From Lentinula raphanica (taxonomy: Eukaryota; Basidiomycota; Agaricomycetes; Agaricales; Omphalotaceae): DNA of 64,000 nt. Position numbers and translations under genes: made by a program. This document shows positions 19,907-58,055 of the stretch, one piece after another. Within the stretch, counting starts at the first letter, position 1, and every line of letters starts with the position of its first letter. The DNA lies in assembly GCA_027919835.1 (NCBI GenBank), contig JANVFP010000004.1:124001-188000 (forward strand), given 5' to 3'. Under the pieces are notes generated by a model. It did not search any database, was not told where the DNA came from, and saw nothing but the letters and a program-made list of their open reading frames with translations.

Positions 19907-21610
19907 ATGACTGAGATATGTCGAGTGATTGAAGAGGCCAAGTACAATGCTCGAGAACAACGAGCGGCCAAGAGCAAACCTCAGCCATGGATCGTTCTCA
20001 AGCTCATGGTGTTTATCACCATCGGAATCATGGGCTACGCTGCATATGTGTATATCGGCAGATTTTGTCTGGAGATGATAAGAGGCGAGAGGAGTGGGAG
20101 AGGTGCTTCGAAGGGAACCGGCAGTGAGGATCTTTGCTTGTAATTCGACGTGGGTCTCTGAGCTCTGATCATCATTCGTTCGTTCGCAGTCGCATTGCTC
20201 GTCGTCTTCTGTCTCCTGTTTCTCTGGATGGTTTGGGCCTACGCATTGGTAAGCACCGATTTGGCTTTTCATTCTACAAATCTGCTCATTCGGAGACGCT
20301 GCTCTATAGGTAGTCCTCATATCACCCGGTTTTGCTAGAGATGTAAGTTCAAATATTCAACATTGCCCTAAATCATCAAACTAACATACAATCAGCATGT
20401 CCCTCAATGTCCACCGCCGATACCACCACCTCCTGCACGACCATCATACGTGTCAAATTCAGCAAGCAGAAACGGAACTTCAAGTTATTCAAACGGAAAT
20501 CACCACCCAGGACACTTTCAAGGTCGTCCCTATGAACAAATGCCTTCTGCTCCCAACGGTTACGACCAGGAAGATTGGAACGCCGGTGTTATGAATACCT
20601 TTCCACGCCCAGGGATCCCCGAACTCCCTCTTTCTCTTCCTCCCCTTCACGAATCTACCCACAATCACAAATCAAACGCAAAACTTTATAATGACCTACG
20701 ACGAGCAGCCGAAAAACACGTAACGAGACGACCTCCGACGACACCTGTGCTCGCTCCGGAGTATCGATTCTGCTCGAAATGCATGTTGATCAAACCATAC
20801 AGAGCGCATCATTGTCGTGTGTGTGGAACAGTATGTTGACTTTTTTTTCCGGGTTCAAGTATCTCTATTCACCGGGCCCAATATTGAATTCCAGTGCGTG
20901 CTCAAATACGACCATCACTGTCCATGGATCGGACAATGCGTAGGAGCGCGTAATCACAAAGTATGAACCGATATCTCTCCTTGTCTCTTGAATTCATCTC
21001 GTCTTACTTATTCGTCGGTACATAGTTTTTCATAAACTTCAACCTCGCCACCGCCATCTTTACCTCATACACCTTCTCCACCCTAATTGCCTACACCGTT
21101 CGTTCTACGAACAACAACGAAGATCTAGACCCGCAACAGATCATCCTCACCGCCCTCTCCGGCCTCTTCCTCCTCTTCACCGCCCCTCTGCTCGTTTATC
21201 ACACCCACCTCATCACGCACTCCCTCACCACCGTCGAAGCTATGGCCCAGCAGGCGATCAAAGACCGAGAAGACCATGTCCTCGCGGACGTCTTCGGCCT
21301 TTGGGAAATCCGGAGTAAGCGAAGGGTGAAAGCGTACTGGGATGAAATCTGGGGACGGATAGATCGGGAGGGGAATATGTGGTGGACTGGAACAGGGAGG
21401 AAGGGAAGTAAGTCACAAGCATGGGAAGAAACGATGGGGAGTACGAAAAGGACTACGGAGAATCCGTGGGGGTGGGTGAGTTGGGTGTTGCCGTTGAGGT
21501 TGAGCAGGAAAGAGGAGGCGAGGATGGGGTTGGAGTATGAGTTGAATCCGAGGTTTGATGCCGAGGGGAGGTGGAGGAGGAGGAGGGAGTGGCCGGTTGA
21601 GTTGAGATGA
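19907..21610 (+). CDS. DHHC-type protein S-acyltransferase
   Basis: Integral membrane enzyme that palmitoylates cysteines of target proteins. I chose the ATG at 19907 ([18 protein letters not shown]) because the N-terminus then matches related fungal proteins; an in-frame ATG at 19817 would leave only 55 bp to the divergent gene. Membrane segments: about residues 30-52 ([20 protein letters not shown]), a second spanning the next exon ([18 protein letters not shown]), and two after the catalytic domain ([34 protein letters not shown]). The cysteine-rich domain reads [36 protein letters not shown] and GARNHKFF, with an intact DHHC centre. The downstream TTVEA supplies the TTxE motif. It has about six exons with a long Pro/Ser/Asn-rich loop before the catalytic domain. 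The target proteins are unknown. Confidence 0.93.
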
Positions 21611-22559
21611 GCTGAGGTGAGGCGAGGCGAGGTGATCACTGATTGAAGAGGGAGAGGTGCTGGGTGTTGGGTGTTGGCATGTACCTGTGTTTTCGAGTTT
21701 GCGAGTGTGTCTTGAGTTTTGATTCACAGGGATGGAATCATGGATTGACAATTGTATATGTTGTATGATACGTAGTAGTTACAAGATACATAGTAGTGAT
21801 AGTAGTTACGAACTCTACGAACCTCGAGCTGTCTGTTTCAACTTTCTGGGTCCCTGTCCGTTGATAGATGACAAGTATAATATATAATACCTGGCACCTG
21901 GCACAGTGGGCACTTGGCCAGACCTAGTCATGATCAAACTTTTTGAGGCTCCTGGTGGGTTACAACTTAGACATCAAAGTGTAACAAGTTACAATGGTAA
22001 TCCATTATCCCTGTGGACTCTGGATTGACTTGAATGCATCCGAGTCAGCAATTACAGCAACTCATTCAAACTGTACTACAGTCTACTATACTAGAGTGGT
22101 CATACTACCGAGTCAATCACATCGGCAAAATCACAAGTTCTGTCCTGAGTCTCTAAGACTCACTGCAGAGATGGCCCCCAATTCCAAATCCTATGTTGCT
22201 CTTAGGATGCCTAGAGTTTCTAGATGCCCTGAGGATCCTTTAAATTTCTTTGCGTGTCTTTTGAATTTCTGCTGAGTCTCTCAAGTTCTTTCTGAGACTT
22301 GAAAGCCTGTAGGAAAAGGGGAATTTGCAGTACTATCATTAGATAAAAAATCTTCAAAGTTCATAGAATACAGTCTACTATATCATTTGGGACAGAGGGC
22401 AATAACCAATTGACCATGAATTCAGGGGGAAAAAAATGGAAGGCTCCAAGTCCTGACCTAATTTGCTCTATTGCCTGGCCTCTTTATCTTGGCAGTAGTT
22501 TGTTAGATACTTAAAATATGATGCAATATAAGTACTATATCAATGATTATGATTCAACT
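21611..22559. other. Intergenic region, AT-rich
   Basis: About 950 bp between the convergent DHHC and NACHT-CAX genes. No gene was seen. CpG becomes rare here, with only a few left between 21,960 and 22,254. Confidence 0.6.
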
Positions 22560-24609
22560 CTACATCTGCAAAACTGCCAGGGTGATGACAAGGTACAATG
22601 TGATTAGTATTATCCCTGCAAGGTAAGTGGACCTGCCATCTCTACAAGAATGGTTTATTAATATCATGTCACAGAGAGCTAATGAATAGCTCACTTGACA
22701 ACTGTGAGTGCAAGTAACACAGAAATGAAAAGGATGATCATCTCAAAGTCTCCAAATACAAGAGTAATTTCATGGCCTGAACTTGATGATTGTGCTATTT
22801 AAAAGCTCATCTTACAAGGACAGCATAGTATGAAGGACATACCACCACCCAATGATGACTAATAATGGTTCTACAAATGCAATGCTTTGCTGTAGATTGT
22901 AATCCAAGTGAAAAAGGGTAATAACAAAGGTGTTCATGACATACAATTGCAGTGCCAATGCAGATATCAACAGCCTTTGCCATCTGACCCTTCATAGCCA
23001 TTCTCACTGCAGATGTATCATCTGAATTTGCCTGATAATGTAGTCAGGGAGATTATCATCAGTGAAAATAAACTAGATAATGGCATACCAGTGGTAAAAG
23101 GATCAAGCTGAGGAAAATTTTTGGGGTTGAATACTCCTCTGCAAATTTATCTATAGCTACAACCACTGGAAGACCATTAGCATATTATTTTGGGAAAAAA
23201 ATTTAACAGCTCACTGCAGAACATATTTAGTGCAGTAACAATGGTAAACCTGTTCCACATGTCATTGCATGTCAAAAACTGGGGTCACTATGTGCTCAAA
23301 ACATTGAAAGCTCACAGTAGCCACACATAAACATGCCACTTTGTTTCATAATCCAAACTCTCATCCTGTTGCTTTATATTTTCTTCATCTTCATCTTCAT
23401 CCTCCAAGTCATCCTCATCTCTATCCAATTGAAATTTGTTTTGGAACAGGTTCCTATGAGTTTTGAACTGAATAATAGAGTCTGTTAGTGCCTTATCAAA
23501 ATTGAATCAGCCAAATAAGATTGGAGCTTTACTTGGAAAAATAGATATGCAAAATACATGACCAATGTAAGGCTCACAATTCCTCTTGAGATATAGAGTA
23601 CTTGTTGTCTTTCCTTTTGCTTCTCTGCAAAGAAGTTTTCAGCATACCTTATATCAAGTTGTATTACAGTCTACTAGTCAGTAGAAATCACCATGTAGGG
23701 ATTGAAAACCTCTTGGGGTCATATATTCCTTTCTGATATTGAAATTGTGGTAAACAGTAGGTATTATCAAGGCTGTTGAAAAAAACCCCTGTCAAACAAT
23801 AATCAATTAACAAAGAAAACTACAAACTGATACAAGACAGCAGCATAAACTTGGTAAAAGTAAGCAGTGCTGGCTCTAGATATTGTTGAGATAGAACACA
23901 CAGAAGTTGACCTAATCCAATGGTTGTAGCATCACTTAGCCTGAGAACTTAAAATGCATGATGAGAGAAGTACTCACACTTGAACACTAGTAACATCAAA
24001 GTCACTTGTGTAGAATCTCAGGCCAGCTAGACTCAAATGGGTCAAAGTTATACACAAGAACATGATTGCAATGAAACAAACCAGCAATGAAGGACCACCC
24101 CAAAATTAGAAGGACATTTGTCAGAATAGATCCAAGAATCTAGAGTAATGAGCTATTCAGATCAAGTATTATATCATATAGAAAATCATACTACTTACCA
24201 TGTTCTGTGCAGTTGCAGCATAATCTATTTTGATATAGTGAGTTGCAACCAATGAGGTTGGTCATGATACTCACCTTGAAGAATGGCAACTGTGCCCACA
24301 ATGATTTTCACAATATTCCCAGTGGATGTTTCAAGTAACCCAATGTTTTTTGAATCAAACCTTTTACCTAGCAAGTCAGTAGCTTCACTGAGAAACTAGG
24401 AAGATATATCATTAGCAATGAGGGAGGAGAGTATGCATGTAATAATTACCCAGGTGAGATTTAGTGTTGCACTGAAGCTCAATGACAGCTGCAGAAATGC
24501 ATCCCAATCCCAAAAAAGTGAAATTATGCTCAATGGAATTGTTCCCAACAGCATGAACTTCAGCAATGGGGCAAATATAAAGATAGTTAAAAGGAGGATG
24601 TTGGATGAA
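22255..24609. other. CpG-free segment
   Basis: Reading every line by eye I find no CG dinucleotide between the CG at 22253-22254 and the one at 24610-24611, about 2.36 kb. Sequence on the right side, including the NACHT exons, has ordinary CpG content. The segment is AT-rich and matches the exchanger part of the NACHT-CAX gene. CpG loss of this kind is the classic trace of long-term cytosine methylation and deamination. Confidence 0.85.
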
Positions 24610-26146
24610 CGGGATAGTATGAAGGGTGCATAGTCCTTATGTGCTTCGAAATCATCAACTAAGATAGAGATTTGACTCGGTTGATTCATCACCAGTTTAA
24701 CAGTAGACACAATGAGATGAATCTGGGAAATGAAGGTTGAATGATGGATATAGAATCGACGTGATCGGGACTTGTCAGATAGATAATCTTGAAAAGATGT
24801 ATGAAGAATCTGAATGTGTGTGTTGTCAATCTTGAGGACAGAGTGCATTCCGCGCAATACAAGCGCAACTTCCCCAGCTTGAAGTCCTGACAGAACCTCA
24901 ATCACCGCTATGCACGGCCCACATGGGTGATTGTTCCAACGTCTTAACCCGTCCAACCCACCCAGGCGTATGAACGTGCCCAATATCATGACCACTTTCT
25001 TGGGATCAGGATATGATGAAAGTATTTGCTCATATAGAAGATCCAGTTCCTTGAACGGTAGATGTCTTTGCGGAACTCTCTTCAGTCCGCGGATGATCGA
25101 AAGTTGCTCCAGAGGATGAGAATGCTTCTCTGCAACAAAGTTGAGTACTGTGGAAGCATAGACGAACTGCCCACATGCTTTCTCAACAATCTCTTCGATG
25201 ATGTCGGAGTCAGGCCATGGGTCCGGAAAATTGAGATGTTTTGTCCGGGGATGCTCCCGTACATTGGCAAAACCAGCTTCCAAAAATCTCTTGATATCTC
25301 TTCTAGTATTCCAAACATCCCTATCCAAGCTGAGATGCTTCAAGAGTGATTTCATAGCATTGATCTGGAAGGCCTCATGAATTTGAGGCTCTTGTCGGCT
25401 GAAGATGAGGAATCGAAAAGGCAGGAGTTCGTCTGAAAGGGATGCGATAAGAGCAATGATTCGTTCCTGAGTGATAGGGTCGACGCATTCATCAAGGCCA
25501 TCGATAACAATGACCCATGGTTGGCTCATCCAAGCACCGTCAACTTCCTGAGCCTTTTGGAGAGCCTTTAGAATCAACTCTTTGAACTGTGTGTCCAAGG
25601 ATGATTGCAGAACGCCGGGATTTCGACGCAGAGTCTCAGTAATTGCTTCTTCGAATGGGTCTATGCCTGTAGCAAGCTGATATGCAATCGTCGGAAAGAG
25701 GTATCCTGCATGGCCTGCTGCGTGATTACGAGAAAAAAAGAAGGAGGCTCCTAGGATATGGTGGTCTGCAGTATGCTCCGCAATAGTCTGCGCAAGGGCA
25801 GATTTACCTACACCGGCAGAGCCATATATCCAGCATATCGAACGCTCCTCCAATTCGGCATCAATCCAACTATTAATTTCCTCCAGAACTTCCTTCCGGG
25901 TGTCTGGGTGACATCTGGGAGGGGAATCGCGTAGTACTGAATCATGTATCGCGCCGACGTCTTTTATGAACTCTAATAGAGTATTCAGAGCTGAAGCTAG
26001 GAGAACGGTTGAGCAAGTTGAAGTTCCTCTTCACAACAGGACGTACCAGGACTGCTCTCATATGTGACATTGGTTTGATCCCTGCCAACATTTTGAAAGG
26101 TGGAACCATGTAGCGAGAATCCGTGTGCATTTGGAAAGAACGACAT
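22560..26146 (-). CDS. NACHT NTPase fused in frame to a CAX-type cation/proton exchanger
   Basis: Exon 1 (26146-26047) starts MSFFPNAHGFSLHGSTF and has NVGRDQTN, a phrase common at the start of agaric NACHT proteins. Exon 2 (25972-24450) carries Walker A YGSAGVGKSALAQT, Walker B PWVIVIDGLDEC, the FSRQEPQI sensor region and HTSFQDYLSDKSRSRRFYI. The frame runs on without a stop into NILLLTIFIFAPL and WDWDAFLQLSLSFSA, the first CAX helices. Exons 24395-24275, 24224-24199 and 24139-24082 give FLSEATDLLGKRF, STGNIVKIIVGTVAIL and ILGSILTNVLLILGWSF. Later exons give AGLRFYTSDFDVTSVQ, TALIIPTVYHNF, LYISRGIVSLTLVMYFAYLF, the acidic loop DRDEDDLEDEDEDEE, AVRMAMKGQMAKAVDICIG, FVEPLLVIIGW, MIILFISVLLAL and DGRSTYLAGIILITLYLVI. 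The stop is at 22560-22562. All junctions are GT-AG and in phase where checked. Total about 900 residues. If two genes, the exchanger might start at Met 24689. Key ion-site residues are changed (see findings). Confidence 0.72.
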
Positions 26147-26583
26147 CCCACACTGTCAGGGGCTACCTTTCACAGGAAAAGGTGGGGAGTCAACGAACGT
26201 CTCACTATCTCTTGGTAGAGTACGTGGAGTAGAGGCAAGAAGAGGAGAATCTGTAAGCTGTGGCGAATGTTAAGCGCCCAATCATTCGGGCTGTCAGTTC
26301 TGACTCTTCTGAGTTCACCTGAGCGGCGAACATTATTTGCATCATAATCATAGATTTAGCAGAGGTCAACATACGCGGAAGACGGTGTTGATGACAGATA
26401 TTCTCAGAACTCCGAGAACACCATGGCAAAACGACAGACAACAGCTGATACAGGTATGTAGAGTATATCGAAGTAGACGAAGGCAAATACAACGGAGATC
26501 AAAAGTATTCAAGAAAGTCATTGACGACGAACGTCGATAGATGCGTTGGGATCATGAAAATGGTTGTTATATCCAAAGCCAAA
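26147..26583. other. Intergenic region upstream of NACHT gene
   Basis: 437 bp; likely promoter of the NACHT-CAX gene and 3' flank of the next minus-strand gene. No other feature was identified. Confidence 0.5.
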
Positions 26584-27840
26584 TCAGTCGCGGCTAGCAA
26601 GGAAAGCTCCTCCCCGTGCTACACCATTGCGCGGTACCCCGTTAAATCCAAGCCCGGGACTGGGGAAATTGCGCTCGGAGTCACTGTAAGCCCCAAATCC
26701 GGGCATTGGGAAACCAGAACGTTGGAAGTCGAGTGCAAGTTTGTCTTCAGCTCCCGATGGCGGAATCATACTGAAGGAGCTTTCAGGACTCATCAGTGAG
26801 TTGACAGAAGCCGGGGAAACGAGAGACTCATTCTGTTCTGAAGACGTGGCGGAAGCAGAGGAACGAGATTTGGCAGACTTTGTCTTGGAAGATGATGATG
26901 AAGACGAAGATTTCTTCGGCTTTTTCGTCTTTGGCGTCGGAGATGGGAATTCGCTAGCAAGTGGACTGGGCCGGGAATTGGAATAGTCGGAACGGGAGGC
27001 AGATGTACCTCCAGGAGATCGACGTGAATCTGAGCCTCCACCAGATACGGAGCTACCGCCCTCGTTAGGCTTTCTAGCAGCGTACAGACCGCCGTCTAGG
27101 TCCGCTGTGTCGTCTTCGTCACCATCGACAGCAGAAGCTGTAGCCTGCTGGAACGGACCAAAGTTATCCGAGCACACACTGGGTGAACTGGGTGAGAACT
27201 CTTGCTGGAAGGGGGAAGGGATGTGTGGATAGGAGGTCCCGCTCCCTTGAAATCCTTCGAATTCACCTTCACCTCCGGTCTGAGCTAAAGCCGCCGCGAA
27301 TCTCTTCATTTCTTTCCGTTCTCTCCTCTTTCTCTTTCTCTCCTCCTTCTCTCGCTCCTTGGCAGCACGCACTTCTTCTTCCTCGATAACACGCTCATTA
27401 ATTGCCGCGGAGTCCAATGGAGCAGCATCGGATATGTTACCGTCGAACGATAATGTTGAAGATGTACGAGCTGGTCGTTGACGCTGTCGTCTTGACCGGC
27501 GTGAAATCTCGTCATGTTCTTCTTCATCTTCATCCTCTGGAAGATGTATCGGACCTGTAGAGCGTCTGCCGAACAAATCATAACCGAAAAATGTGATATG
27601 TTTTTTCTGCAGTTTCTTTTTTCTCCGTGATCGATTTTGACCAACGTTGGAATGGAGAGAGACAGTTTCGGCTTCGGTGTCGGTGTCCAGCAGTGGTTCA
27701 GTCAACAAAGACTCGAGGTACCGCGGAGGTCTTTGGAAAGAATCGCTGTCACTGTCATCATTGGAAGAAGGAGCCTTGAAGCAGTGAAGACATGAACCAA
27801 AGGCCGAGTGGAAGACGTCTTTCCATGATGGTGAATCCAT
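26584..27840 (-). CDS. Low-complexity charged protein of unknown function
   Basis: Single-exon protein of 418 residues starting MDSPSWKDVFHSAFGSCLHC. The short N-terminal block with CLHCF is the only part that looks ordered; the cysteines could be lipidated, as in similar N-termini (inference). A conserved-looking HITFFGYDLFGRRSTGPIHL follows at about residue 80, then a Glu/Arg coiled-coil-like helix (EEEEVRAAKEREKEERKRKR) at about 160-190. The rest is Ser/Gly/Pro-rich with an SSSSSSSSK run. There is no catalytic motif and no membrane segment. I do not recognise the family. The strand and spacing (437 bp) give no operon-like link to the NACHT gene. Confidence 0.72.
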   Translation of the reverse strand: MDSPSWKDVFHSAFGSCLHCFKAPSSNDDSDSDSFQRPPRYLESLLTEPLLDTDTEAETVSLHSNVGQNRSRRKKKLQKKHITFFGYDLFGRRSTGPIHLPEDEDEEEHDEISRRSRRQRQRPARTSSTLSFDGNISDAAPLDSAAINERVIEEEEVRAAKEREKEERKRKRRERKEMKRFAAALAQTGGEGEFEGFQGSGTSYPHIPSPFQQEFSPSSPSVCSDNFGPFQQATASAVDGDEDDTADLDGGLYAARKPNEGGSSVSGGGSDSRRSPGGTSASRSDYSNSRPSPLASEFPSPTPKTKKPKKSSSSSSSSKTKSAKSRSSASATSSEQNESLVSPASVNSLMSPESSFSMIPPSGAEDKLALDFQRSGFPMPGFGAYSDSERNFPSPGLGFNGVPRNGVARGGAFLASRD

Positions 27841-28935
27841 GGAGAAGTCTGGGTATTGTCAGGGCGTAAACGGTCAAGTTGAGAGCAGGTGATATGTCGG
27901 GCTATGTAGAAAACCTGTAGAAAACACTTGATTTTTTTGGAGGCATGCTGTCCGGCACCGGGTCAAATCAGGATGGGTGGCGCAAGATTAGATTACATAA
28001 ATTGCCTTTCACGTTTTTGAACTTTCGCATCTTCATTGTTGGTTTTTGCGAAGTGGCGAGGCCAAGGCATTATCGATATATCACCATCTGCCTCATAGGT
28101 GCGCTCTTAAATCTCTTGGTTTCCTCTTTCTTGTGGTAACGAACCTACAGCTCTAGACACTCTGCTCGAGAATTTGAGTTTATGCTAAAATTCGATGATT
28201 CTCTTCGGACACGTTCTACAAATAATGCCTGAAGCCACACCCTCCGAGATCATAGTGCTAGCAGCCATTCGACTGTAATTTAGGGTACTTACTGGATCGA
28301 ATTTCCAGTGGCGCTAACACGCTTTGAAGTGCGGCTGCTGGATCTTTCTCATGTCCCAGACGAAGTGATGCGTTGCTGGAGCAAGAAAATCCACATAGCC
28401 TGTCGAATCCGTAATACAATCCATCGCTATACCATTCCTCACTCTATGTCTTCAAGTTCTGAAGATCTCAGAAGCTTCAATAAATTCGTATAGCAGGTCC
28501 ACGCATAAAAATGCCCAGCCATCCAACGATACGATATTACGCCGGTGCACAAGACCTAGAAGCGTTTTGTGCCTTGTGGCTTTGGGGAACCTCTGACCCA
28601 TCTGGTTAAAATCATAATCTTGCAATTAAGAATCCTCAACTATCTTCGTTCTGATTAACACCTTCAATACTCTAGATACACCCGAATCGTGCTAGCACAT
28701 GGCTCCTCAGCTCGACTGCCTTATCTTTTCCCAATACTGGTAGGCTTTTTATGTAAGTCTACGTATCTCTCTTGTACTGCATGACCTCCCAACGATAACA
28801 CCTTTTTCTCTTAGTCTCCCGGTCCGCCAGAGTGTATAAATCCTCTGATACCCCACCTTCTTAATTTGAAGCCAGCCTCATCGGTGAATCTTTAGTTCTC
28901 AGCTTCGACAACACTGTTCGCTTCAGCGTCTCGAC
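27841..28935. other. Intergenic region between divergent genes
   Basis: 1.1 kb holding the promoters of the charged protein (minus) and the peptide transporter (plus). No other gene was seen. Confidence 0.55.
28835..28840 (+). promoter_or_regulatory. Probable TATA box of the oligopeptide transporter gene
   Basis: TATAAA about 100 bp above the ATG at 28936, followed by a pyrimidine-rich leader. Confidence 0.6.
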
Positions 28936-31900
28936 ATGGGTCTAGCATCTCTGACTGGTATCAGTTTGAGGAAGCACTTAGAACCCCAAGCCGCCGTGGA
29001 GGATTCTTTCAAGGATGAGAAAACCTTCACGAGAGACACGGTAGACCTACCTGAAAAACCGTACGCTGGGACCGATGAGAAAGTTCATCTGAGTGACAAT
29101 GATAGCTCGGATTCTTTCGTCGGTGATGTGTACGAGGACGTCCGAATAATTGACTTGGGAGAGGACGGAAAAGAGAGACCTATTGGTATGACCTGGTTGA
29201 CTGTCTCGGTTCAATGACTGAACTGCATTTCTCAAGTGACCGCCAATGACTGGAGTCTTCGACTGATCTCTCTCGAGGTAATTTCCATCTTTATCACCCG
29301 AGACTAGTTTCAAAGCGTCTATCCAGGATGACCCCACCCTTCCCGTATGGACGTTCCGCTTATGGTTCCTATCTATTGGTCTATCCTGCTTCGGTGCCGT
29401 TCTCAGCGAGATCTTCGTACGTCCTCAGGTCGTCGATTTTCCTCCGTCTCTCAACTAACATGAATCTAGGCATTCCGACCTCAAACCGTCTACGTCAGCC
29501 AACTCTTCCTCCAAACCGCTGCGTTTATCCTTGGCAAGATCATGGAAGAACTTCTCCCAGGACCCGTGAACCCCCGATTCCCGACACGCAACAATGCTTT
29601 CTGGAGATTCATCAACCCAGGAAGGTTCAATATCAAAGAACATGTCGGGATCGTCATCATGTCTGCGGCTGCTACCCATGGAGCTTTGGCGATCAACATA
29701 TTCGCTGCTGATGACCTGTTTTATAACACAACGATGAACCCAGCGGTTGCAATATTCACGTTGCTCGGTAGTCAACTTTTGGGTTATGGACTCGGAGGTG
29801 CGTTTATTTAGCACCTCGTGAGGCTTGATTATCGACGCAGGTTTTTAGGAATGATGCGTGGATTCTTGGTCTACCCCACGAGCATGGTGTTCCCGAATTT
29901 GATTCCTACCATCCAGATGTTCGATGTTTTGCATCGTGGTCATGATAACTCATTGCAGAAGAAGCGGGTCAAGTTTTTCTGGACATTATTCATAATCATA
30001 TGTGAGTTTATCTCCCCCTGATTCCCTTTTCGCCCGCTGATGTTGAATCCATTCGCTTCTAGTCTTTTGGCAATGGATACCAGAGTAAGCGCTTTTTTCA
30101 CAAGTCAAGAAATCCTGCTGATAGTGTGAATTTTCGTTATCGCAACAACAAAAAAGGTACTTTGCCCCGATGCTCACAGGACTTTCTATCTTTTGTTTGG
30201 CACAGAAGAACAGCGCATGGGTTACACGTATCTTCGGAGGCGCGGCTGGTAATGAAGGTACATTTACTATGTATAGCTTGAGCGATAAGCTAGAAGCAAC
30301 TGACCATAGTATCCGCCTAATTGAAAACAGGTCTTGGCCTTTTCTCACTCTGCTTTGGTTCGCGCCACTTCCAGCTCATCCTCTTGGTATTGGATTCACA
30401 TAACTTCTTTAGATTGGAATTATGTCGGAAGCGGAGGCTCGGCTTATGGTGCCTTGTTTCAACCCATACAAACCCAGCTTTCTCTGTACACTGGTGTGCT
30501 GATTTGCATGTGAGTAGAAATCCGGACTTGAGTGCTCAAGGCGTTGGTCTGATCCACTCCTTCACAGTATCAGCTTCTGCGCTGTGTATGCGAACAATGT
30601 CTGGAAGTGCGTCTCAGCTGCTTCCAAGGAGATACTCACAGGCTGACGCTTCTATTGCAACAGCGCCCAGAACTTCCCGTTCTTATCTCAGGTATCATCG
30701 TCTTTCTTTTCTTGCCCATCTTTTCTTTTTCTGCTGAGCGTTCATCGAGCAGCTCTTGTTCTTTGAGAATGGTACAGAGTATGATCAGACCCTCATCCTG
30801 AACGATGACTTCACTCTAAACGAGGGCAAACTTGCTGTTGTCGGGCTACCATGGTACAGCGCTACGCAGACTGTGGCAAAGATTGGAGCAAGTCTGTCAT
30901 TTGGGGCTACAAGTGCGTTTCTATTCTTATGTGGTAAACCTTCGACCAATAATATGTGATCCATAGTCACGCATATCATCGTCTGGCATGGTCAAGAGCT
31001 GTGGAATGCACTGTTAGCGGCGAGAGTACGTGTCCAGCGGCCATCAGCATTATGAATGACTTGTGACGAAACGTTTTGAATGTAGGCTGGCACTGTCGAG
31101 GATGGTCAGTATGTTTTACAACTCTTTTATGCCCAGTACTTCATTTGTATCAGCGCACTACGAGAAGATGAAGGTATGGGTCTCGTTGACGTTTGAAAGA
31201 CTTGTATTCAACTGATAAAATAACCGTACAGGTCTATAAAGAGGTGCCTTTCTGGTGGTACTTGGCCATGTTCGTGGCCTCCATGGCAATTGCGATAGCC
31301 ACCAACTACACTGGAGATTCTGAGCTTCCTTGGTGAGTTCGCATGATATGTTGACCTCGCTATTGGGATTAATATTCGTCCAGGTGGGCGTTCTTCATCT
31401 GTATGTCAATTCGAAGTTACGACCGACTCCCGAGTATTTATCAATATATTCATCCGGATAGCTGTTGGATTCGCCGCGTTCTTCTTGCCTATCATCTCTG
31501 CCCTATATGCTATCCTATGGTGCGCTCGTGGTGCTTTTACAGGGATATCCGCTTTGGTATAACGTTCACCTATCTCCAGTTTTGTTCCTGGTACAGAAGA
31601 CATAGCTCGAGTGCGATCCACATCAGATTTCGAAGGTTTCTCCTCTCATCGATATCCTTAGATGCTTGGAGCGGCGCTAGTTCCCGGGAGACCTCGCGTT
31701 CGTCGTGTCCCTTTCATTCCAAAATCTCTCTGATCATGATATGCTGCAGGCGAACATGTATTTTACTCTCTATGCGTACAATTCGACAGAACAAGGTCGC
31801 TCGATGACTCGTGACTTGAAGATGGGTTGGTAATCCCTTTGAGCTCACCTTTCGTGTTCGTTCGTTTGACAACTTCACCTATTAGGCCAGTATACCAAGC

Positions 31901-37492: not shown

Positions 37493-38989
37493 ATGTCTTC
37501 TTCCCAACGACCACTGCCTAAATCAATCCTAGTCATTGGCGGAGGACCAGCGGGACTGGCGACGCTCAGGAATCTACTGGAACGCTCCAATGGCGCATTC
37601 GAGAAGGTAGAATTAGTAGAAAGAAGAGATAGAATTGGAGGAGTCTGGTAAGTCTGAATGTGTGCATGCGTTGATAGATGGGTTCATTCTGAATGCGTTA
37701 GGTGTCGAGATGAAGATCAGGACGAGGAGACGATAGCGACCAATACTACCTTGAAACCCCAATGGCCAACGCCTTCTTCGCCTGAGCTCACGAACATCAG
37801 CTCGGTCGGGTTTAACGGGGAGAGACTCTCTGGAGCAGAAACAGGAGAATACATGCGTAAATTTGGGGAGGAATATGTAGCCAAGGGCGTGGTTCGGTTG
37901 AATGTCGAGGTTGTGTCCGTAGAAGAGCTCGTCACGACTGACGAATCGAAAGCAGGAGGATGGAAGGTTAAACTCCGAGACTGGTCGGACGTGGATGAAA
38001 TGGATGAAATCAAGATGATAGAGGAGATATGGGATGCGGTTGTTGTCTGTGCTGGGTTTTACGATCGACCACATTGGCCAAAGACAGAAGGGTTAAATGA
38101 GGCGAAAAGGAGAGGACTGGCTTTGGACGGTAGATGGTGGTCTCCAGCCGAGGCAGATGCTTACAAAGGAAAGAAAGCAGTGATCATCGGGAATCGCCAC
38201 TCGTCGTCTCTCATCGCGACCGAGCTAGGAAAGGTCACCGACCAGCCGGTGTATATATCCTCCTCCTCCTACTCCTCGTCGAACAACGCCCAAGATCGTT
38301 CATTCAAGGTTCACTACGTAGGTCGAGTCCTCAAATACATCCTTCAACCACCACACGAAACAGACCAAGGTTCGATTCTCGAACGACTCACTGTCATCTT
38401 CGATTCCGGTGAAGAAATCAAAGATGTCGATCTCGTTATCCACGCAACAGGTTATTATCCTCATCCTGACTTTGTCCATGTCCGCCCTATACCTCAATCT
38501 ACTCCCTCTTCTTCCCATCTCGTCCCACTTACGTCCTACTCCTCACCTCTCCGCCCTCATCATCGCCGAATTCCTTTCCTCCACGCACACATTCTCTACG
38601 CGTACAATCCCTCCCTTGCGTTCATCGGCCACATCCTAGCTCTAGAACCCTTCGCGTTCGCAAACGTAGCTAGCACCTGGCTCTCTCTCGCTTGGTCTGG
38701 TCAGCTTGGGACAGATGCCTATCCGGACGACGTACAAAGCCGATTGAAGACCGACGAGGATCGAATGAAGGAGGTCGAGAGGTTGGCGGTCGAGTTAGCT
38801 GGCGAAGGCGAATTGGTCACGTATACTTTCTTTGGACCTTCCTCCGAAGCAGCGTACCTCTCGTCTCTCGTATCATCCTCCGGAGATGATTTGCCTGTAT
38901 CCAGAGAAGAGCTGGAGGAGAAGATGAGGGTGGTTTTCAATGGAAGTTCGCCAGAGGCTGTTAATTGGGCGAGAGCGGTTTGTGTTTGA
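37493..38989 (+). CDS. FAD/NAD(P)-binding monooxygenase-like protein (third copy)
   Basis: Two exons, 37493-37648 and 37702-38989, joined in phase (RIGGVW-CRDEDQDEE); 480 residues. The FAD motif is ILVIGGGPAGLATLRNLL followed by ERRDRIGGVW. The second nucleotide site reads KAVIIGNRHSSSLIATEL, in which GNRHSS replaces the more usual GNxxSA/GxGxSG, so cofactor use may differ. VIHATGYYPHP is the usual ATGY motif near the C-terminal half, and FIGHILALEPFAFANVAS is typical of fungal members. The reaction is unknown. The gene converges on a small secreted-protein gene, and its 3' end has been copied downstream (see 40537-40790). Confidence 0.86.
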
Positions 38990-43640: not shown

Positions 43641-46600
43641 GTCGGTGGGTTGGGATCATACGATGTGTGATACGAATATTGATCGATACCAGCACAGAGC
43701 AGCACAGCCAGTGCGAGACCGTAGACGGGTTCAATATTCCTTTTTACCCGTATAGCCCATATCATGCACCCTGGGGTCTTGTTGGGTCTTGTAGGGTCTT
43801 CTGGATTGTGCGCATGGCGAGGCCACAGCCTCTCCATCGTACAGCTGTAGCCTGCGACGGAGGTTTCAAGTTCTGATCTGATACGGAGGCTGATGTGAGG
43901 GATTTGCTGGGATTTGCTACCGAGAACACCCACCGCCGATCCTGGCTTCAGGCCTCAATTATTCAGTATGTACTTCAGTTCACAAATTTCGTGAATGGCA
44001 GACATGATTATTGATATGCCATCTCGATGCCATCCTGTAAGTACTATCATGTACATGATCGTCCGAAGTTACTATCGTCTTAACATTGAACAATTAGCGA
44101 ACCGCTCATAATGATTTGATGAACATCTAACAAGACTGTACGTCGCCTCAACTTTGTAGCCATCTCGATTCTCCAAGTGGATTCGCATCTTAGACTCGGA
44201 CTGTCACTCCATGATCTCCTGGACTCCATCTCCATACATCTCCCTCACCCTTCTTCGCCTTATGGCCTTCCAACTTCAAGCCGAGCTTCCTCATGCTCAA
44301 AGTGTTCCAAATCGCTCAATGCTCCTGCTTGCTCATGCTATCATAGTGATCATGATGAATATCAACAACCCCCTTGTGAGCCTTTGTATTGTGTGCACTG
44401 TGAACTTATGTGTCCCGGCGACTCCCAACCTGTTACTATCTCCGAGTCCCGACTGTTATCTGTACCGACTTAATCATCGGGGAACCCAGAAAATCCCTCT
44501 CAGCCAGTGTCAAGCCAGTGTTTCAGTCTTCAAAGTTCAGAACTGTTCAGAATGACAACGTACAAGTTATAAACCGCTCATGATGAACATCTGTCATCTA
44601 AAGACAGCTTCGTATTAACTGTGAAGCCATCTCAATGAGTCTGTGAAGGTGTCTGGTTGTAGGAGTCCCCTCTGTAGTATGTACCGAGTCCCGACTCAAT
44701 CGTTGAAAACCCGGAAGATCCCAGAGAATGAAAATCCCTCTCAGGTCAGAGGGAGCGTTTCAACTTTCAGGCAGTTTCCGCCTCTCAGGCTCGCATATCG
44801 AAAGCTGCAAAAGCTATGCATCGAACGACGAAAGCTACGAAGAGCTAGTGAGATAGAGTACGAGCCATCGTAGGCCATCGTGGGCTCGTGTGGGCCGTCG
44901 CAGCTCTCAGCAATGAACGCTGAAACTGTGAAAAGGGATAAGGGCTGATAAGGGATAAGGATCTGAAGACTGACTGGGCAGTCGGAAGATCAACGTCAAC
45001 TTGAATGGACAGTGGACACTGAGTACTGGAGTCTGGACGGCCTTGAACAAAATCCTGAACACAGCACGCGCCTATTGAAGCCTGAGTATTGAACGTAACA
45101 ATCAACACAGATTGAACGTATGAAGATATGTGTATTTGTGTTCAAACGTTCATTTGTTGGGACAAGATGGAGGAGATGATGAGCTTTGATGAGTTTCGGA
45201 CTCACCTCGAGGATGGTATAAGGATGTATGGGGCTGTATGGGGATGCATATCTATCATCTATCATCGATAAGAGAATTGTTGTATGTACACTGATTGCAG
45301 TCCTTCATCGTCGTCGTCGATGCGAGTCGTTCCGGTCCACTGTCTCAGTGCGAATCCAGGTACTTTGACTCCGGGTGTAGTAGGACAGGTGTAGGAAACG
45401 AGGAACGTAACGTACGCGTTGGACAGCGTTGGCCGAATCTATCTTGCGTTGGGTAGATCACTGATGACGGGCGGGTGCGTCGGGTGGCGTAGGCGCGCCT
45501 GAGGAAACCTGAGGGAGGTAGAGGGAGGGTATTGAGTTAGACTGAATTAGACTGAATCAGTGTCATTACGGCTGTGAGAAAATCGCTCAACCTCATTCCT
45601 CATTTTGCAGGGAAAGAATTCAAAAGAGAAAAGCCCTCAAAGGGAAGGTTCCGGTTCCGAAACCCTCACCTTTTCATTCTTCCTTGCTTTCTTACAACGA
45701 CAACTACCAGTCGAGGACTTGGTTTTGAGCTTGAAGCTTGAGACGACCACCCCACAAAGACAGATACAGAGGGCTTTGAACTTGAGGTTCGTCTTTGCAT
45801 TACTCATACGGCAGATATCTAAAAGGAACTGATTTGAAAGAAACCGAAACAGAAAACGCGAACGCGAACGGAATCAGAAACAGAAGAGCGAGCATCAACC
45901 GACTAGAGGATACCAAGCAAAAATACAAAGAGCACAAAAACAGAAAAACAGAAAGAAAAACCGAAAAAAACGTACGTCGATTCTACTCTGATTCTGCTCA
46001 CTATGATGGATGACCTACGTGATACTTAGTCTCGACTCTCAAGCCACTACTAGATAGCTTCTCGATATCGAGCGACGAAGATAGGCAGTATACAGAGCAA
46101 TCTACGCAAATTCGCAGAGACGAATACAGCAACAGCCAGAGGCAAAAGACTCGAAAAAGAGCGCAAGAAATAAGAAACAAGGATTACTCAGCTCTGGTTC
46201 GTCCCTTCGCCTCTATTTGCTTTCCCTTTCTTTCCTTGTCCCTTTGTTTCCTTTCATTCATCGCTCCTTTCATCCCTTTGTTCCCTTCTGCCCTTTACCG
46301 TTCCCTCGTCGTTTTCTTCGTCATCGCTCTCTTTCGCTTTTTTCACGCATCACGGGAGAAATGGCGTTAACGACGCATACTGACAGCGCATTACGCATTA
46401 CGCATAAACGTTTAAACAACGTACACGTTGACAGACAACGTATCGGCTATATCCAGCTTCAACTTGGACCATCATCATCATCGACCGCTATCGTCGTCGT
46501 AGACATCGATATTCAGAGTCGTAGATATCGACTTTCATCGCACATCGAGTAATATCGCACATATCGCAAGCAACATCTCTCTCATCTATCGTATCCAGCA

Positions 46601-46757
46601 ATCATTCGACATCTCTCATCTATCGCATCGTCGCATCGTCGCAAACATCGCATCATCGCAAACAGCGCACATCTCTCACATCTCTCATCAAACGCTCATC
46701 AAACGCTCACAAGGACAAAACCAACCAACTTTTTGACAAAAAGACAGATAGACGTAC
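43641..46757. other. Long intergenic region
   Basis: 3.1 kb without a recognisable gene. It holds the diverged duplication at 44097-44790. From about 46,200 onward it is pyrimidine-rich, followed by CATCG/CGCAAACATCGCATC-type repeats (46,530-46,690); this is probably the promoter and leader of the giant gene that starts at 46758. Confidence 0.55.
44097..44790. repeat. Diverged tandem duplication, about 470 bp offset
   Basis: Landmarks occur twice in the same order: AACCGCTCAT-ATGA-GAACATCT (44100 and 44573), GTAGCCATCTC or GAAGCCATCTCAA, CCGAGTCCCGACT, AACCC-GAA-ATCCC and AATCCCTCTCAG. The spacing differs by insertions. Non-coding. Confidence 0.6.
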
Positions 46758-49700
46758 ATGGCTCGAGGCAAACGAGGAAGAGGATCTAGCGCCACTGTTC
46801 GCGCCACCGCGGGTAGCGCGCGCGCACGGGGAAGGGGAAGGGGGAAAGCTCGTGGAGCGGGAGGAAGAGGACGAGGTGGAGGAGGAGCGATATATCATTC
46901 ATCAACGGACACGGATTTCGTCATTCAGGTGTACAACGGTACGCAAATCGATTTCCCCCTCAAGATTTTCGAAATCTAGATCTCATCCCCCCCTTCTTAC
47001 TAATACTAATACTACTCTTGTGTTCATTAACAGACGACTATGACACAGGGAGGTACTTTAACAATGTCGATTTTTCGGGGCTCGGTGGGGCTCGGGGGGA
47101 CGAGCAGAGTAGACGGGGGATATGTCGTGGGCGGGGGTGTGGGCGGGCGAGGGGGAGGGGACGAGGAGGAGGAGGAGGAGCGGGAGGAGGAGGAGGGGGA
47201 GCGGAAGGAGGGGTAGCGGGGAGAGGGAGAGGAGGTAAGGTGGTTAAGGGGAATAGAGGAGGAAGAGGAGGGTAAGTTCACCTTGGCTCGCTGATCCTGG
47301 TTTCGATTCTGATCCTGATACGGGGTTTTATCTGTACAGTCGGAGGAACACGTACGATGACAACGACAACAACGATGAGTTTGAAGACGAAGACGAGGAC
47401 TTTGACGGAGCTCAAGATCAAGACGAAGGCGACGAACGCTCGTCCTTCACCAAACCAAAGCAAAACACGAACCCCCTCCTCTCACTCATCGAATCCCCCC
47501 AGACGATCGCGTTGTGGACAAGACGGCCTCTGTTGAGACCGGTCGTGTTCGTCCCTGCCGTCCATCGGAGGGTGTTGTTTCGGGCTGAGGAGGAGGATGA
47601 GGAGGAGGAAGGGGAAAGTAAAGGCAAAGGCAAGAGTCCTGCACATAATCTGGTTGGAGATATAGACCAAGGTCGGAGTTTCTCGTTCTGAAAAACAGTC
47701 CTCGGATAAAACTGAGCTCTGGATACTTGTTTTGTTGTGAACAGATCCCGACTCTGATTCGGACGACGGAGACGAGGAATTCTACGACGTCGAAGAGGGT
47801 CCGGAGGTTATCGATATCGTCCAAGACTATCCCGTTCACGCTCAAAACCACGCCTCTTCCTCCTCCGCTTCATCCTCCTCTTCCCTGTCGTCCAACTCCG
47901 ACAAAGACCAACGAGACTCCCTCCCGACCGCCGACCGCGTCGAGCGTGTGTTTATGCGGATGCGGGAGGATGAGTATGGAGAGGGAGGCGATGAGGAAGG
48001 AGAGGAACACGAGGAAGGGGAAGGAGACGGATATGATGAAGACGACGATACATACGGTGTCGACGGCGTAGACAGCGGTTCTAGAGCTCGAGCTCTCGAT
48101 GTCGATGTCGATGTTGTACATCCCTACCCCACCACCACGACCACTTCCTCCGCTGCCTCTACTTCCACTACCTCGACCTCGACCCTGTCCCTCTCCTCAA
48201 CCACGTTCAAAACGTTCACCTTCCCCTCGGAACAGCGTGTGCCGAACCTCAACACTGCTCAAGCACAGTCCCGACAGACGCAAGAACAGTCCCGGGGAGC
48301 AGAGCCAGAAGGACAAGGAGAAGGACAAGGACAAGGACAGGGACAAGGACAAGGACAAGGACAAGGAGACACGTCCCTCCCCGAGATCGACTTTTCCGAC
48401 GTGGGTCGGTTCAGAGCGTTTATGGGTCTCGGTCTCGGTCTCGGTCTCGGTTCATCTGCTTCTGTTCCTGCTGCGCGCGCTCTCATGTCCGTCTCGGCCA
48501 CTGTTTCGCCTACGACGTCCACCACGAGCACAGGCAACTCTGCCACGAGCACGATGAGCACGACGAACTCTGTCAACTCTGTGAACTCTGTGAACTCTGT
48601 CAACTCCCATCCCAACTCGAACGCTCCTCTCTCCGCCCTCTCCGCCGTCTCCCCTGTGAACTCTACCGACTCAAACGGTTCTGGAGAACCCAAAGAAGTC
48701 CAAGGAACTTTCGGAACCAGAGAGTCCCAAGAGACGAAGGACAACAAAGACAACAAAGACAGCAAAGAAACGAGACTCGGCCTGGGGCGGCTGAAGAGAC
48801 AGAGACAGAGGGAGAGGGAGAAGGTGAGGAAGAAGGTGGAGAGGGAGAGGGAGAAGGTGAGGGAGAAGGTGAGGGTAGAGAGGGAGAAGGTGAGGGAGAT
48901 GAAGGAGATTCAGGGGATGGGTACGAATGGCTTAGACGAACTAGAAATAAAAGATCCGGGAGAAGAGAAAGAACGAGGAGAACGAGGAGAACGAGGAGAA
49001 AACACAGAAAAACAGGAAAAGGAAGAGCAAGACCAAGCTGAAGAGAAAGCTGGAGTAGCAGAGGAGAAGGAAGAGGAGGAGGAAGAGGAGGAAGAAGAAG
49101 ACGATATCGTAGTATACGTCGCTCCCAATCCACGACATGGGAGATCGGGGTCTTCGACTCCAGTTCCTACGCCCCCTCCTCCTCCTCCTCCGCCTACGCT
49201 GAGTCCTACTCTTCCCGCCTATCTTACTTCTACTCAGCATATCACCCGCCCGAGGTCCTCTTCGGGCTTGGGATCTACCCTCCCCGGCCATCTCGCTCAT
49301 CCCACTCATCCCACTCATCCCACTCATGTCACTCGCCCGAAGTCCTCCTCAGGCTTGGGACCTACTCTTCCTCCTAATCTTCCCGGCCTTTCTCATCATG
49401 TACCTCATCACACCACCCTCCCCCGGCTCGCGCCGCATTTCGCCCACATCGCCCGGCCGAGGTCGTCTTCTTCTGCTTCTTCTTCTGCTTTCGGGTTGGG
49501 TGTTCCAGGAGGTGTAGGTGTAGGTGTAGGTGTATCTGTACCTGTTCGTGATCCTGTCCGTGAACGGGTCGGCGCTGGGAGTGAAAGGATCGTTGGGCAA
49601 GGTTTGTTTGTTTTTGTTTTTCAAATTCTTCCCTCTGTTTTGTTTTTTCCACCTCTTCATGGACAGTGTTATATACGGTCTTTGTTCGTTATTTCGAAAC

Positions 49701-55700: not shown

Positions 55701-58055
55701 CAAGAAGATGAAGGAGAGGAAGGAGGAGGATGGAACGCTGTTCTATCCCGTCGTCGGTCTCGTGCTCAACGACGTGCCCGTGCTCGTGCTCGTTCCGGTG
55801 CAGGTGGTACCAGTGGAGTTGGTGGAAAGACAAAGGCAGACGAAGACGAAGAGTATATCGCGTTCATCCAGGTGGGTTTCGTTTCGGTTCGGTTTTCGTT
55901 ATTTCGTTCGGTTATGTTTTCTCGTTTCGTTCGGGTGTCTCGTTCGTTCTCTCGTTCTTTTACTCTGTACGCTATACGCTATACTCTTACTCGAGTATTT
56001 CTTCACCTTCATCTTCACTCACTTCCACGCACTACTTACTCTCACTCGTATTTCCCTCCTTTCTTCCCCCTTTTCATCTCTGTTCATCACCGGGTGCACC
56101 TTTCATCCCTTTTTCATCTCCATCCATCCCGTTTCATCCCCTTTTCATTTCGTACAGCCCTCACGGGTCTCATATTCTCACGCATACGCGTCACTCATAC
56201 CTACTCTGATCTTACTCATTCTTACTCATTATTATTCTTACTCATCTTTACTCATTCTCACTCACTATCACTCCTACCGCCATCGTGAACCTCTTAAACG
56301 TTTGAACTTGTTCTAACATATCACTCGTTTCCGGACACAGGATATGCCCGATACGAATCGGAACCAGTCCAGCGCCAACGCCAACGCCAACGCCAACGCC
56401 AACTTCATCTCCAACACCAACTCGAACGTCAACGCGAAGGCGAACGGAAAGAACAAAGGCAAGGCGAAAGCCAAAGACCCTGGGACGTCGAGAGAGATAA
56501 GCAAAGCGGTATTGAGAGCCGTGTATGATCTTGATCTTGATCGCGAAGACGAGGAGGGCGAGAAGAATGATGAAGATGAGGACGAGGAGGATTGGGAGGA
56601 CGAGGACGAGGATGGAGAAACCGACGTAGAGGAAGGTGGAGACGAAGACGAAGACGAAGACGACGACGAGGAAAGCGAAGACGAAGAAGAAGAAGCCGAA
56701 GCCGGGAGCAAAGACGGTGAAGAAGATGATCACGATGACTACGATGACCTCGACTTGGACGAAGACAACGAAGAAGAAGAGGATATATGGAATGTGAAAC
56801 GTGCACGTACGTATCTCCTCTATCCCCTTTCCTCCATCAATTCAACTAACCAACCACCTCTCCCTTTGCCCCTCTCCAGCCCGCCGCTCGCACCCACCCA
56901 CTCACCTCCCCCCGGCCCTGCTCACGCTCTGGGAAGCCGACCGCGCGAAGAAGGCGGCGCGGAAGAGGGAGAGGGAGCTCGCGAGGCTTGCGGCTGCTAT
57001 TGATCCGATAGCTAAGAAGACTAAGAAGAAAGGGGGGAAGAAAGGGAGGAAGGAGAGGAGGAGGGCTTGGAGGGTGGCGGTGGAGATGGAGATGGAGATG
57101 GGTGAGATTGACGGAGGAGGAGGAGAAGGAGAAGGTGTATGGGAAGGTGTAGGGGAGGAGGAAGGGAAAGGGAAAGGGAAAGATTCGAAAACGCCATCGT
57201 GGATCCACGAACGCTGGCGGTCCAACTTCACAGGTTCCTCAACCTCAACCTCAACCTCAACCCGAACTCTGCATCCACCTCTTCCTCCGCACCAGCACCC
57301 CCACAAACCCCACAAACCGCACAACCCCCACAAACCCTCTCCCTCCCCCCTCTCCCCTCCCCCACACGCAAAAAGATCCACGTCCTCGGGTCCGCGCTCG
57401 GTCTAAAGAGCAAGTCTCGAGGCAAAGGCGACGCGAGGTACGTCGTTCTCCGTCGGACGGCAAGAACGGTCGGGAACACCACGACGAAGACGAGGAGGAA
57501 GATGGTCGAGTATGAAGTGGTGAGGAGGGAAGTCGAGAAGGTGTTTGGGAGGGGATCGACCGCGGTGGCGTCTAAAGGGGGACTTGGGGGATGGGGAGCA
57601 GAGTTTACGGCCGGGTCGGATTTATGGGGTCCTCGGGGTTTGCGGGGAAGTGGGGGTATGGGAGGAGGGGTAAGGAGAAAGGGAAGGGTAAATGGGAGGA
57701 TAAGAGTAAGGATAAGAAAGATAAGAAGGATAAAGGAAAATCCCCGATGGTTCCGAAACACAGAGAAGGCGAGGAAGTTGGGAAGGTGAGGATTGAAATA
57801 TTAATATTCCTCTCTCACTATCACTATCTCTAACCACCCTCTCTCTCTCTCTCTTTTTGTCCACAGACCGCACCGAAACTGACGTCGTCCAATGTTGGTT
57901 TCCGGATGTTGGCTTCGATGGGCTGGACGGAGGGCGATGCGATTGGGTTGGGGTATCATTTGCATGGGCATGGACATGGACATGGGCACCATCATGAGCA
58001 TCGCGATGGACACGCTGATGAATCTGGATCCGTTCAAGTCCATACCCATACCCAA

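What the first reader, a model, noticed from the sequence alone, without database searches (positions are those of the whole stretch)
22560..26146. NACHT NTPase continuous with a CAX-type cation exchanger
Seen in sequence: exon 2 (25972-24450) runs from Walker A and Walker B motifs straight into exchanger helices with no stop, intron or new start needed, and the next exons (24395-24275, 24224-24199, 24139-24082 and further) complete both CAX repeats to a stop at 22560. Known: fungal NACHT proteins are STAND-type, often self/non-self or stress sensors with varied effector domains, and CAX proteins move calcium or other cations across the vacuolar membrane. Inference: a signalling NTPase coupled to a membrane transporter-derived domain, an architecture I do not recall being described. 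The alternative is two neighbouring genes, one with a lost stop.
Basis: partly seen in the sequence, partly recalled or inferred. Interest (0 to 1): 0.88.

Follow-up and report, generated by a model that had tools for sequence, protein, structure and literature searches.

The report
Immune-type ATPase fused to dead exchanger
A mushroom gene joins an immune-receptor-type switch protein to a copy of a calcium exchanger that has lost its ion-binding site, and a second source shows the same join, so it looks like one real fused gene rather than two neighbours run together.

Summary
On the minus strand, 26146-22560 reads as one 17-exon frame (890 aa; 16 GT-AG introns of 49-67 nt): a NACHT/NPHP3_N STAND ATPase, then a full-length CAX-type exchanger. 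"Two genes, one lost stop" is disfavoured: P0183, an unnamed database protein with 16 member sequences, carries the same NACHT, linker and exchanger start in one frame (313/516 identical, one gap, far from the junction). The genome is a Lentinula, nearest L. raphanica by its normal CAX (412/415). The exchanger half falls in one clade with 7 Lentinula proteins from 5 named taxa. Window and all 7 lack both calcium-site glutamates (E106 position Lys; E302 motif rebuilt), so it is probably dead as an exchanger. It is a DNA-level copy of a CAX gene: 11 of 15 introns sit at the identical place and phase, including a 10-nt microexon. It has no CpG over 2,356 bp, as after long methylation. Best reading: a membrane-embedded NLR-like protein with an integrated, transport-dead exchanger as anchor or bait. 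Transcript, localisation and function are untested.

The parts
22560..26146 (-). Whole coding region of the NACHT-exchanger gene, 17 exons, 890 aa
   Evidence: frame open throughout, 16 GT-AG introns of 49-67 nt
26047..26146 (-). Exon 1: N-terminal motif MSFFPNAHGFSLHGSTFQNVGRDQTNVTYESSP
   Evidence: a similar F..V[GAR].. motif in the first 120 residues of 18 of 120 listed NACHT relatives (my own pattern)
24450..25996 (-). Exon 2: NACHT ATPase, linker and exchanger N-terminus in one frame
   Evidence: aligned to P0183 over 516 positions
25395..25883 (-). NPHP3_N/NACHT P-loop domain (aa 72-234), Walker A GSAGVGKS, Walker B VIVIDGLDE
   Evidence: NPHP3_N 89.8 bits, NACHT 37.6; coordinates converted from residues
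24672..24740 (-). Linker aa 453-475 between NACHT and exchanger
   Evidence: Aligned without gap to P0183; own-genome NACHT paralogs at 40% identity stop aligning at about 24740
22560..24671 (-). CAX-like exchanger half, 415 aa, from ISILVDDFEAH to the stop
   Evidence: Na_Ca_ex 75 bits
22641..24395 (-). Exons 3-16: 24395-24275, 24224-24199, 24139-24082, 24026-23978, 23911-23902, 23849-23828, 23772-23692, 23624-23533, 23467-23316, 23249-23215, 23165-23089, 23031-22945, 22889-22843, 22781-22695; exon 17 is 22641-22560
   Evidence: intron places compared with normal CAX
23902..23911 (-). 10-nt microexon (GTCAACTTCT), matching GTCCAGTTCT of the normal CAX
24306..24308 (-). Lys codon (AAA) at the alpha-1 calcium-site position (Vcx1 E106)
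   Evidence: role of E106 from PMC10531375
23011..23031 (-). ANSDDTS in place of the alpha-2 GNAAEHVTS motif (Vcx1 E302), two residues shorter
23316..23467 (-). Exon 11 with an expanded acidic loop (DRDEDDLEDEDEDEE)
   Evidence: the acidic helix of Vcx1 is described in PMC10531375
22254..24609 (.). CpG-free block of 2,356 bp, almost coincident with the exchanger half
   Evidence: 0 CpG; 79.9 expected from its own C and G
22213..22321 (.). Copy of a short genomic repeat just beyond the gene's 3' end
   Evidence: 25 other places in this genome, 74-84% identical

Best explanation
This is one gene of a Lentinula mushroom that codes for a NACHT STAND ATPase with a transport-dead CAX-type exchanger as its C-terminal membrane module. 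Shown from sequence: one intact frame; the same join in a second source; the exchanger half copied at DNA level from a CAX gene; both calcium-site glutamates lost in window and relatives. Inferred: the protein sits in a membrane (most likely the vacuole, where fungal CAX works), the dead exchanger serves as anchor or bait, and when something binds or disturbs it the NACHT ATPase switches and oligomerises as other STAND proteins do, with the short N-terminal motif passing the signal on. My separate odds: single fused gene 0.88; no calcium/proton exchange 0.8; bait or sensor 0.4; plain membrane anchor 0.3.
For: Open 17-exon frame. P0183 carries the same NACHT-linker-exchanger frame, 313/516 identical: NACHT 259/422, residues 453-492 20/40, residues 493-549 35/57; searched back, P0183 residues 5-521 hit this locus as one match, and its tail otherwise hits only the normal CAX. 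Both domains over Pfam cut-off. STAND-type fold for exon 2: Apaf-1 and CED-4 lead the PDB matches, TM by query 0.32-0.44. CAX fold kept in the relative P0090: TM 0.76/0.81 to Vcx1 4k1c. Glutamate loss in window and 7 of 7 clade members; E in 81 of 93 database rows. Conserved introns. Eight of the nearest NACHT relatives, all Moniliophthora roreri, carry other hydrophobic C-terminal tails.
Against: No transcript data. Lentinula database records give the exchanger half as separate proteins starting at or after the linker (P0090-P0096). No row labelled L. raphanica for either half among those listed, though its normal CAX (P0102, 6 members) is held. The CpG void suggests long methylation, hence perhaps silencing. 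P0183 covers only the first 77 residues of the exchanger. No canonical C-terminal repeats, so it is not a textbook NLR. The bait role has no direct evidence.
Confidence: 0.5

Rival explanations
1. Two neighbouring genes: a NACHT gene that lost its stop and a dead CAX-like gene with its own start near 24689; the joined frame is not used as one mRNA.
For: Database exchanger halves of Lentinula start near the linker (MSVLV, P0090-P0094; later Mets in P0095, P0096). An in-frame ATG exists at 24689. Base composition changes sharply at about 24750.
Against: P0183 has no stop between the parts either and keeps linker length at 61% identity. Both sources would need the same lost stop, and the promoter of the second gene would have to lie inside the NACHT exon. 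The window reads Ile where the relatives' annotated start Met stands.
Confidence: 0.1
2. Fused once, now decaying: the exchanger half, or the whole gene, is a methylated and silenced relic that still happens to be open.
For: 0 CpG in 2,356 bp; similar depletion in repeat-bearing loci of this genome (o/e 0.09-0.33 in L045, L010, L011, L014, L013; L010 and L045 overlap); very high divergence within one genus; no L. raphanica annotation seen.
Against: No stop and no broken splice site in 415 codons; neutral evolution to the observed or half the distance left 0 of 200 runs stop-free. Selection in the past with recent decay is not excluded.
Confidence: 0.2
3. The exchanger half still transports something: the active site was rebuilt (Lys plus Asp) for another ion, and the ATPase gates it.
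For: Fold and several helper residues remain: the GN of alpha-1, the Gln of the later alpha-2 helix, and an acidic loop. The Lys is fixed in the clade, which is not what random decay looks like.
Against: Both residues described as key for calcium transport are gone and the alpha-2 motif is two residues shorter.
Confidence: 0.12

Closest known systems
Agaric NACHT/NPHP3_N STAND proteins (nearest named: Moniliophthora roreri 'nwd2' proteins P0184-P0191)
   Same: N-terminal motif, NACHT core (43-46% identical in P0184, P0185, P0188), and in 8 M. roreri rows a hydrophobic C-terminal tail
   Different: The M. roreri tails are not CAX domains by the Pfam listing; the window has a full exchanger and no WD, ANK or TPR repeats
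Vacuolar calcium/proton exchanger CAX/Vcx1 (CaCA superfamily)
   Same: Fold (on relative P0090), both Na_Ca_ex repeats, intron places
   Different: Both alpha-repeat glutamates lost; TIGR00378 196.2 bits, below its cut-off 211.15; joined to a NACHT ATPase
Integrated decoys proposed in fungal NLRs (C-terminal PKinase copies of CHK-2, PMC12258605, section 14)
   Same: A duplicated host protein joined to the C-terminus of a NACHT protein, apparently of single origin
   Different: Here a multi-pass membrane transporter in an agaric, dead at its active site by sequence; the Sordariales cases keep canonical repeats; no attacker of CAX is known here

Membership tests
STAND / NACHT ATPase | P-loop NTPase with Walker A and NACHT-type Walker B | tested here: met
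   Pfam NACHT 37.6 bits over cut-off 26.7, NPHP3_N 89.8 over 24.8; motif names recalled
STAND / NACHT ATPase | STAND-type fold | tested here: met
   Apaf-1 and CED-4 lead Foldseek matches of the exon 2 model, E 2.9e-7 to 3e-6, TM by query 0.32-0.44; modest scores
Canonical fungal NLR | C-terminal WD40, ankyrin or TPR repeats | tested here: not met
   No such family among the Pfam matches of the 890 aa at E <= 0.01
Canonical fungal NLR | N-terminal effector domain or amyloid-type motif | tested here: inconclusive
   No Pfam domain; N-terminal motif resembles relatives'; agaric amyloid-like motifs are described in PMC9815663 (passages), profile not run
Functional CAX exchanger | CAX fold with two Na_Ca_ex repeats | tested here: met
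   Pfam two stretches; relative P0090 model to 4k1c TM 0.76/0.81
Functional CAX exchanger | GNxxE glutamates of both alpha repeats (Vcx1 E106, E302) | tested here: not met
   Lys at the first, rebuilt motif at the second, in window and 7 of 7 clade members
Functional CAX exchanger | NCBIfam equivalog TIGR00378 | tested here: not met
   196.2 bits, cut-off 211.15
Integrated-decoy NLR | Copy of a host protein joined to the receptor | tested here: met
   Intron places shared with the genome's normal CAX; same join in P0183
Integrated-decoy NLR | An attacker binds or modifies the joined copy and triggers the receptor | not testable with these tools
   Needs experiments

The most novel reading that the evidence does not exclude
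A membrane-embedded fungal NLR: Lentinula joined a NACHT ATPase to a copy of its vacuolar calcium exchanger, killed the exchange site, and uses the dead transporter as an integrated decoy that watches the vacuole's calcium machinery. The locus evolves like an immune or allorecognition gene: exchanger halves are 47-58% identical between species (91% for L. detonsa against aff. detonsa), where normal CAX is 87-98%.
Probability: 0.3. Interest if true: 0.82.

Novelty: new variant of a known kind. Interest (0 to 1): 0.63.

Why it matters
The fungal integrated-decoy candidates that I read about (PMC12258605, section 14) are soluble domains such as kinases. A dead ion transporter joined to an immune-type ATPase would tie fungal innate immunity to vacuolar calcium handling and can be tested in shiitake relatives. 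It is also a clear case of a coding segment stripped of every CpG while its frame stayed open, so methylation-driven mutation may have helped make a functional change: in the normal gene the lost Glu codon is part of a CpG (GTC GAA), and CpG decay there turns Glu into Lys (window GTG AAA).

Tried and rejected
Rejected: a recent copy of another CAX in this genome (the best other piece is the normal CAX on C7 at 48-50% over short stretches; no DNA-level copy apart from the short end repeat); a retrocopy (introns and microexon shared with the normal gene); a chance frame. Early gene models were wrong and replaced: 15 exons with bad boundaries, 16 exons without the microexon, 886 aa, then 17 exons. 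The repeat at 22213-22321 was suspected to be an RNA gene; no Rfam family reached its cut-off in 20000-30000. Literature searches without a report of this architecture: NACHT with calcium exchanger (one unrelated paper), Lentinula with NACHT (13 papers, 12 listed, none on it by title and abstract start), CpG depletion in basidiomycetes (none), fungal NLR with transmembrane (6 listed). In PMC9815663 'transmembrane' and 'exchanger' have 0 occurrences, 'transporter' 1 and 'membrane' 2; in PMC4986451 'transmembrane', 'transporter' and 'exchanger' have 0; in PMC12258605 'transmembrane' and 'exchanger' have 0, 'transporter' 1. I read passages of these and, whole, section 14 of PMC12258605; no supplements. 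Gene context in other Lentinula could not be read: no tool here held their genomes.

Limits of counts: searches scored only 7989, 7998 and 7995 candidates within a length range; one search listed 120 of 461. One search used 93 of the 96 hits (P0001, P0003, P0005 left out). The tree has 35 rows that I chose: window, normal CAX, 7 clade rows, 26 others. The C7 gene model is partial at its 3' end. Of 120 listed NACHT hits, 91 have no hydrophobic segment after the NACHT by my simple threshold, 18 have one, 11 have two or more.

Full report
What is there. The minus strand from 26146 to 22560 holds one gene. I rebuilt it exon by exon and settled on 17 exons and 890 aa. All 16 introns are GT-AG and 49-67 nt long. 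The first 33 residues are a short motif; then come a NACHT/NPHP3_N ATPase, a linker and a full-length CAX-type exchanger. Pfam finds both parts above cut-off and no WD, ankyrin or TPR repeats. The AlphaFold model of exon 2 (mean pLDDT 82.8; its last 60 or so residues are below 60) matches Apaf-1 and CED-4 best among solved structures, at modest TM scores by query of 0.32-0.44.

Which organism. The genome's normal CAX on contig C7 (L041) is 412 of 415 residues identical to a Lentinula raphanica protein, P0102. So the window comes from a Lentinula, nearest L. raphanica by that one gene.

One gene or two. The decisive item is P0183, a 523-aa frame from an unnamed source with 16 member sequences. 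Window exon 2 and P0183 share 313 of 516 aligned positions with a single gap, inside the NACHT. Split up: NACHT 259/422, residues 453-492 20/40, residues 493-549 35/57. P0183 ends just past the window's exon 2 boundary, apparently by running into the intron there. Searched back into this genome, residues 5-521 hit this locus as one match; the other matches are NACHT paralogs at 40% or less, and the normal CAX for its tail alone. Its exchanger start is 42/48 identical to the L. edodes protein P0096, so P0183 is probably from L. edodes or a close relative. A linker kept in frame and length at this divergence is not expected of DNA between two genes.

Against the fusion stand three things. There is no transcript evidence. 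Lentinula records give the exchanger half as separate proteins: P0090-P0094 start with MSVLV or MSALV where the window reads ISILV, P0095 and P0096 start later. I read them as truncated models but could not see their genomes. And no row labelled L. raphanica appears for either half in the lists, although its normal CAX is held; those searches are bounded by length, by about 8,000 scored candidates each, and one search shows 120 of 461 rows. None of the 89 hits lists a NACHT family beside PF01699, and none of the 120 rows lists PF01699; P0183 itself carries only 77 residues of exchanger, too few for a Pfam match.

Where the exchanger came from. Of 15 introns in the exchanger half, 11 fall at exactly the same alignment column and phase as in the C7 gene, 3 more have the same phase and order within 1, 3 and 14 columns in variable loops, and 1 (23827-23773) has no counterpart; C7 has 1 that the window lacks. 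A 10-nt microexon is among the shared features. So the half is a DNA-level copy of a CAX gene. In a tree of 35 chosen rows it forms one clade with 7 Lentinula proteins (100/100), next to a Moniliophthora CAX with weak support (93/73). The branches are long, so the exact place is unsure. The clade is diverse for one genus: 47-58% between species pairs, 91% for L. detonsa against aff. detonsa, where normal CAX is 87-98%. Fast change or old allelic lineages would both look like this. In this genome the fused locus is the only copy found.

A dead exchanger. In Vcx1, E106 and E302 are described as key for calcium transport (PMC10531375, passages). At the first position the window and all 7 clade members have Lys; of 93 aligned database rows 81 have Glu, 8 Lys (the 7 and the broken-looking P0156), 1 Ala and 3 a gap. 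At the second, 82 of 93 rows keep the AEH or CEH triplet; the 7 clade rows, P0156, P0164, P0179 and P0181 do not, and the window reads ANSDDTS, two residues shorter than the usual motif. The model of the relative P0090 still takes the CAX fold (mean pLDDT 79.8; TM 0.76 by query and 0.81 by target to 4k1c). I infer loss of exchange, not loss of fold.

The CpG void. From 22254 to 24609 there is no CpG in 2,356 bp, where 79.9 would be expected from its C and G. The NACHT part has an observed/expected ratio of 0.75 and the window 0.90. Four of 128 half-kilobase bins of the window have none, all in this block, against 0 of 60 in six 5-kb control stretches, one of which (L046) is itself depleted at 0.52. 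Repeat-bearing loci of this genome are depleted too, and four NACHT loci have long CpG-free stretches beside the match (L028, L030, L031, L032). So the void is unusual, not unique. The normal CAX coding sequence has 61 CpG; of the 56 in aligned columns none is CpG in the window, and CA and TG are the commonest replacements at 13 each. A review describes CpG methylation in most Basidiomycota as restricted to transposon-rich regions (PMC13297926, passages). I infer long methylation of this half. The lost Glu codon lies in a CpG in the normal gene (GTCGAA); the window has GTGAAA.

Selection. Evolving the normal coding sequence neutrally to the observed distance gave a mean of 13.65 stops and 0 of 200 stop-free runs; at half the distance 6.9 and 0 of 200; at a third 4.4 and 3 of 200. 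Divergence is 0.458, 0.324 and 0.663 at codon positions 1, 2 and 3, but constraint on the normal gene adds to that skew. Past selection with recent decay remains possible.

How it may work. Eight close relatives from Moniliophthora roreri carry other hydrophobic tails after the same NACHT, so this branch of NACHT proteins may favour membranes. In fungal NLRs the C-terminus is thought to sense and the N-terminus to act, and non-canonical C-terminal domains are discussed as integrated decoys (PMC12258605). A dead copy of a host transporter in that position fits a bait or an anchor best. No step of this has been tested.

Verdict. It is a new variant of a known kind: a NACHT STAND protein with an integrated exchanger that is probably transport-dead. 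It fails the tested features of a canonical NLR (repeats) and of a working CAX (glutamates), so I file it as a member of neither.

Noticed in passing
22254-24609: No CpG in 2,356 bp, ending in the repeat on one side and just inside the exchanger start on the other.
   Followed up: partly
22213-22321: Short repeat with 25 other places in the genome, 74-84% identical; several copies lie in CpG-poor loci and carry a short stretch in the opposite orientation, so it looks like a small DNA transposon remnant.
   Followed up: partly
L041:1569-4690: A histidine-phosphatase-like frame (RHGETDENR) lies directly upstream of the normal CAX; in Lyophyllum shimeji (P0001) the two are annotated as one protein (PF00300 with PF01699).
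   Followed up: no
P0185-P0188, P0190, P0191, P0197, P0198: Moniliophthora roreri NACHT proteins with two to four hydrophobic segments after the NACHT and no Pfam name for them: perhaps a family of membrane-tailed NACHT proteins.
   Followed up: partly
P0257: Moniliophthora roreri record with NACHT and actin (PF00022) in one protein; may be a gene-model error.
   Followed up: no
46500-57800: GC-rich stretch with long overlapping frames on both strands; the seven frames scanned gave no Pfam match.
   Followed up: partly
21026-21610: Part of a DHHC palmitoyltransferase gene on the plus strand, convergent with the NACHT-exchanger gene.
   Followed up: no
1001-1534 and 37658-38989: Two flavin-monooxygenase-like frames in one window.
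   Followed up: no
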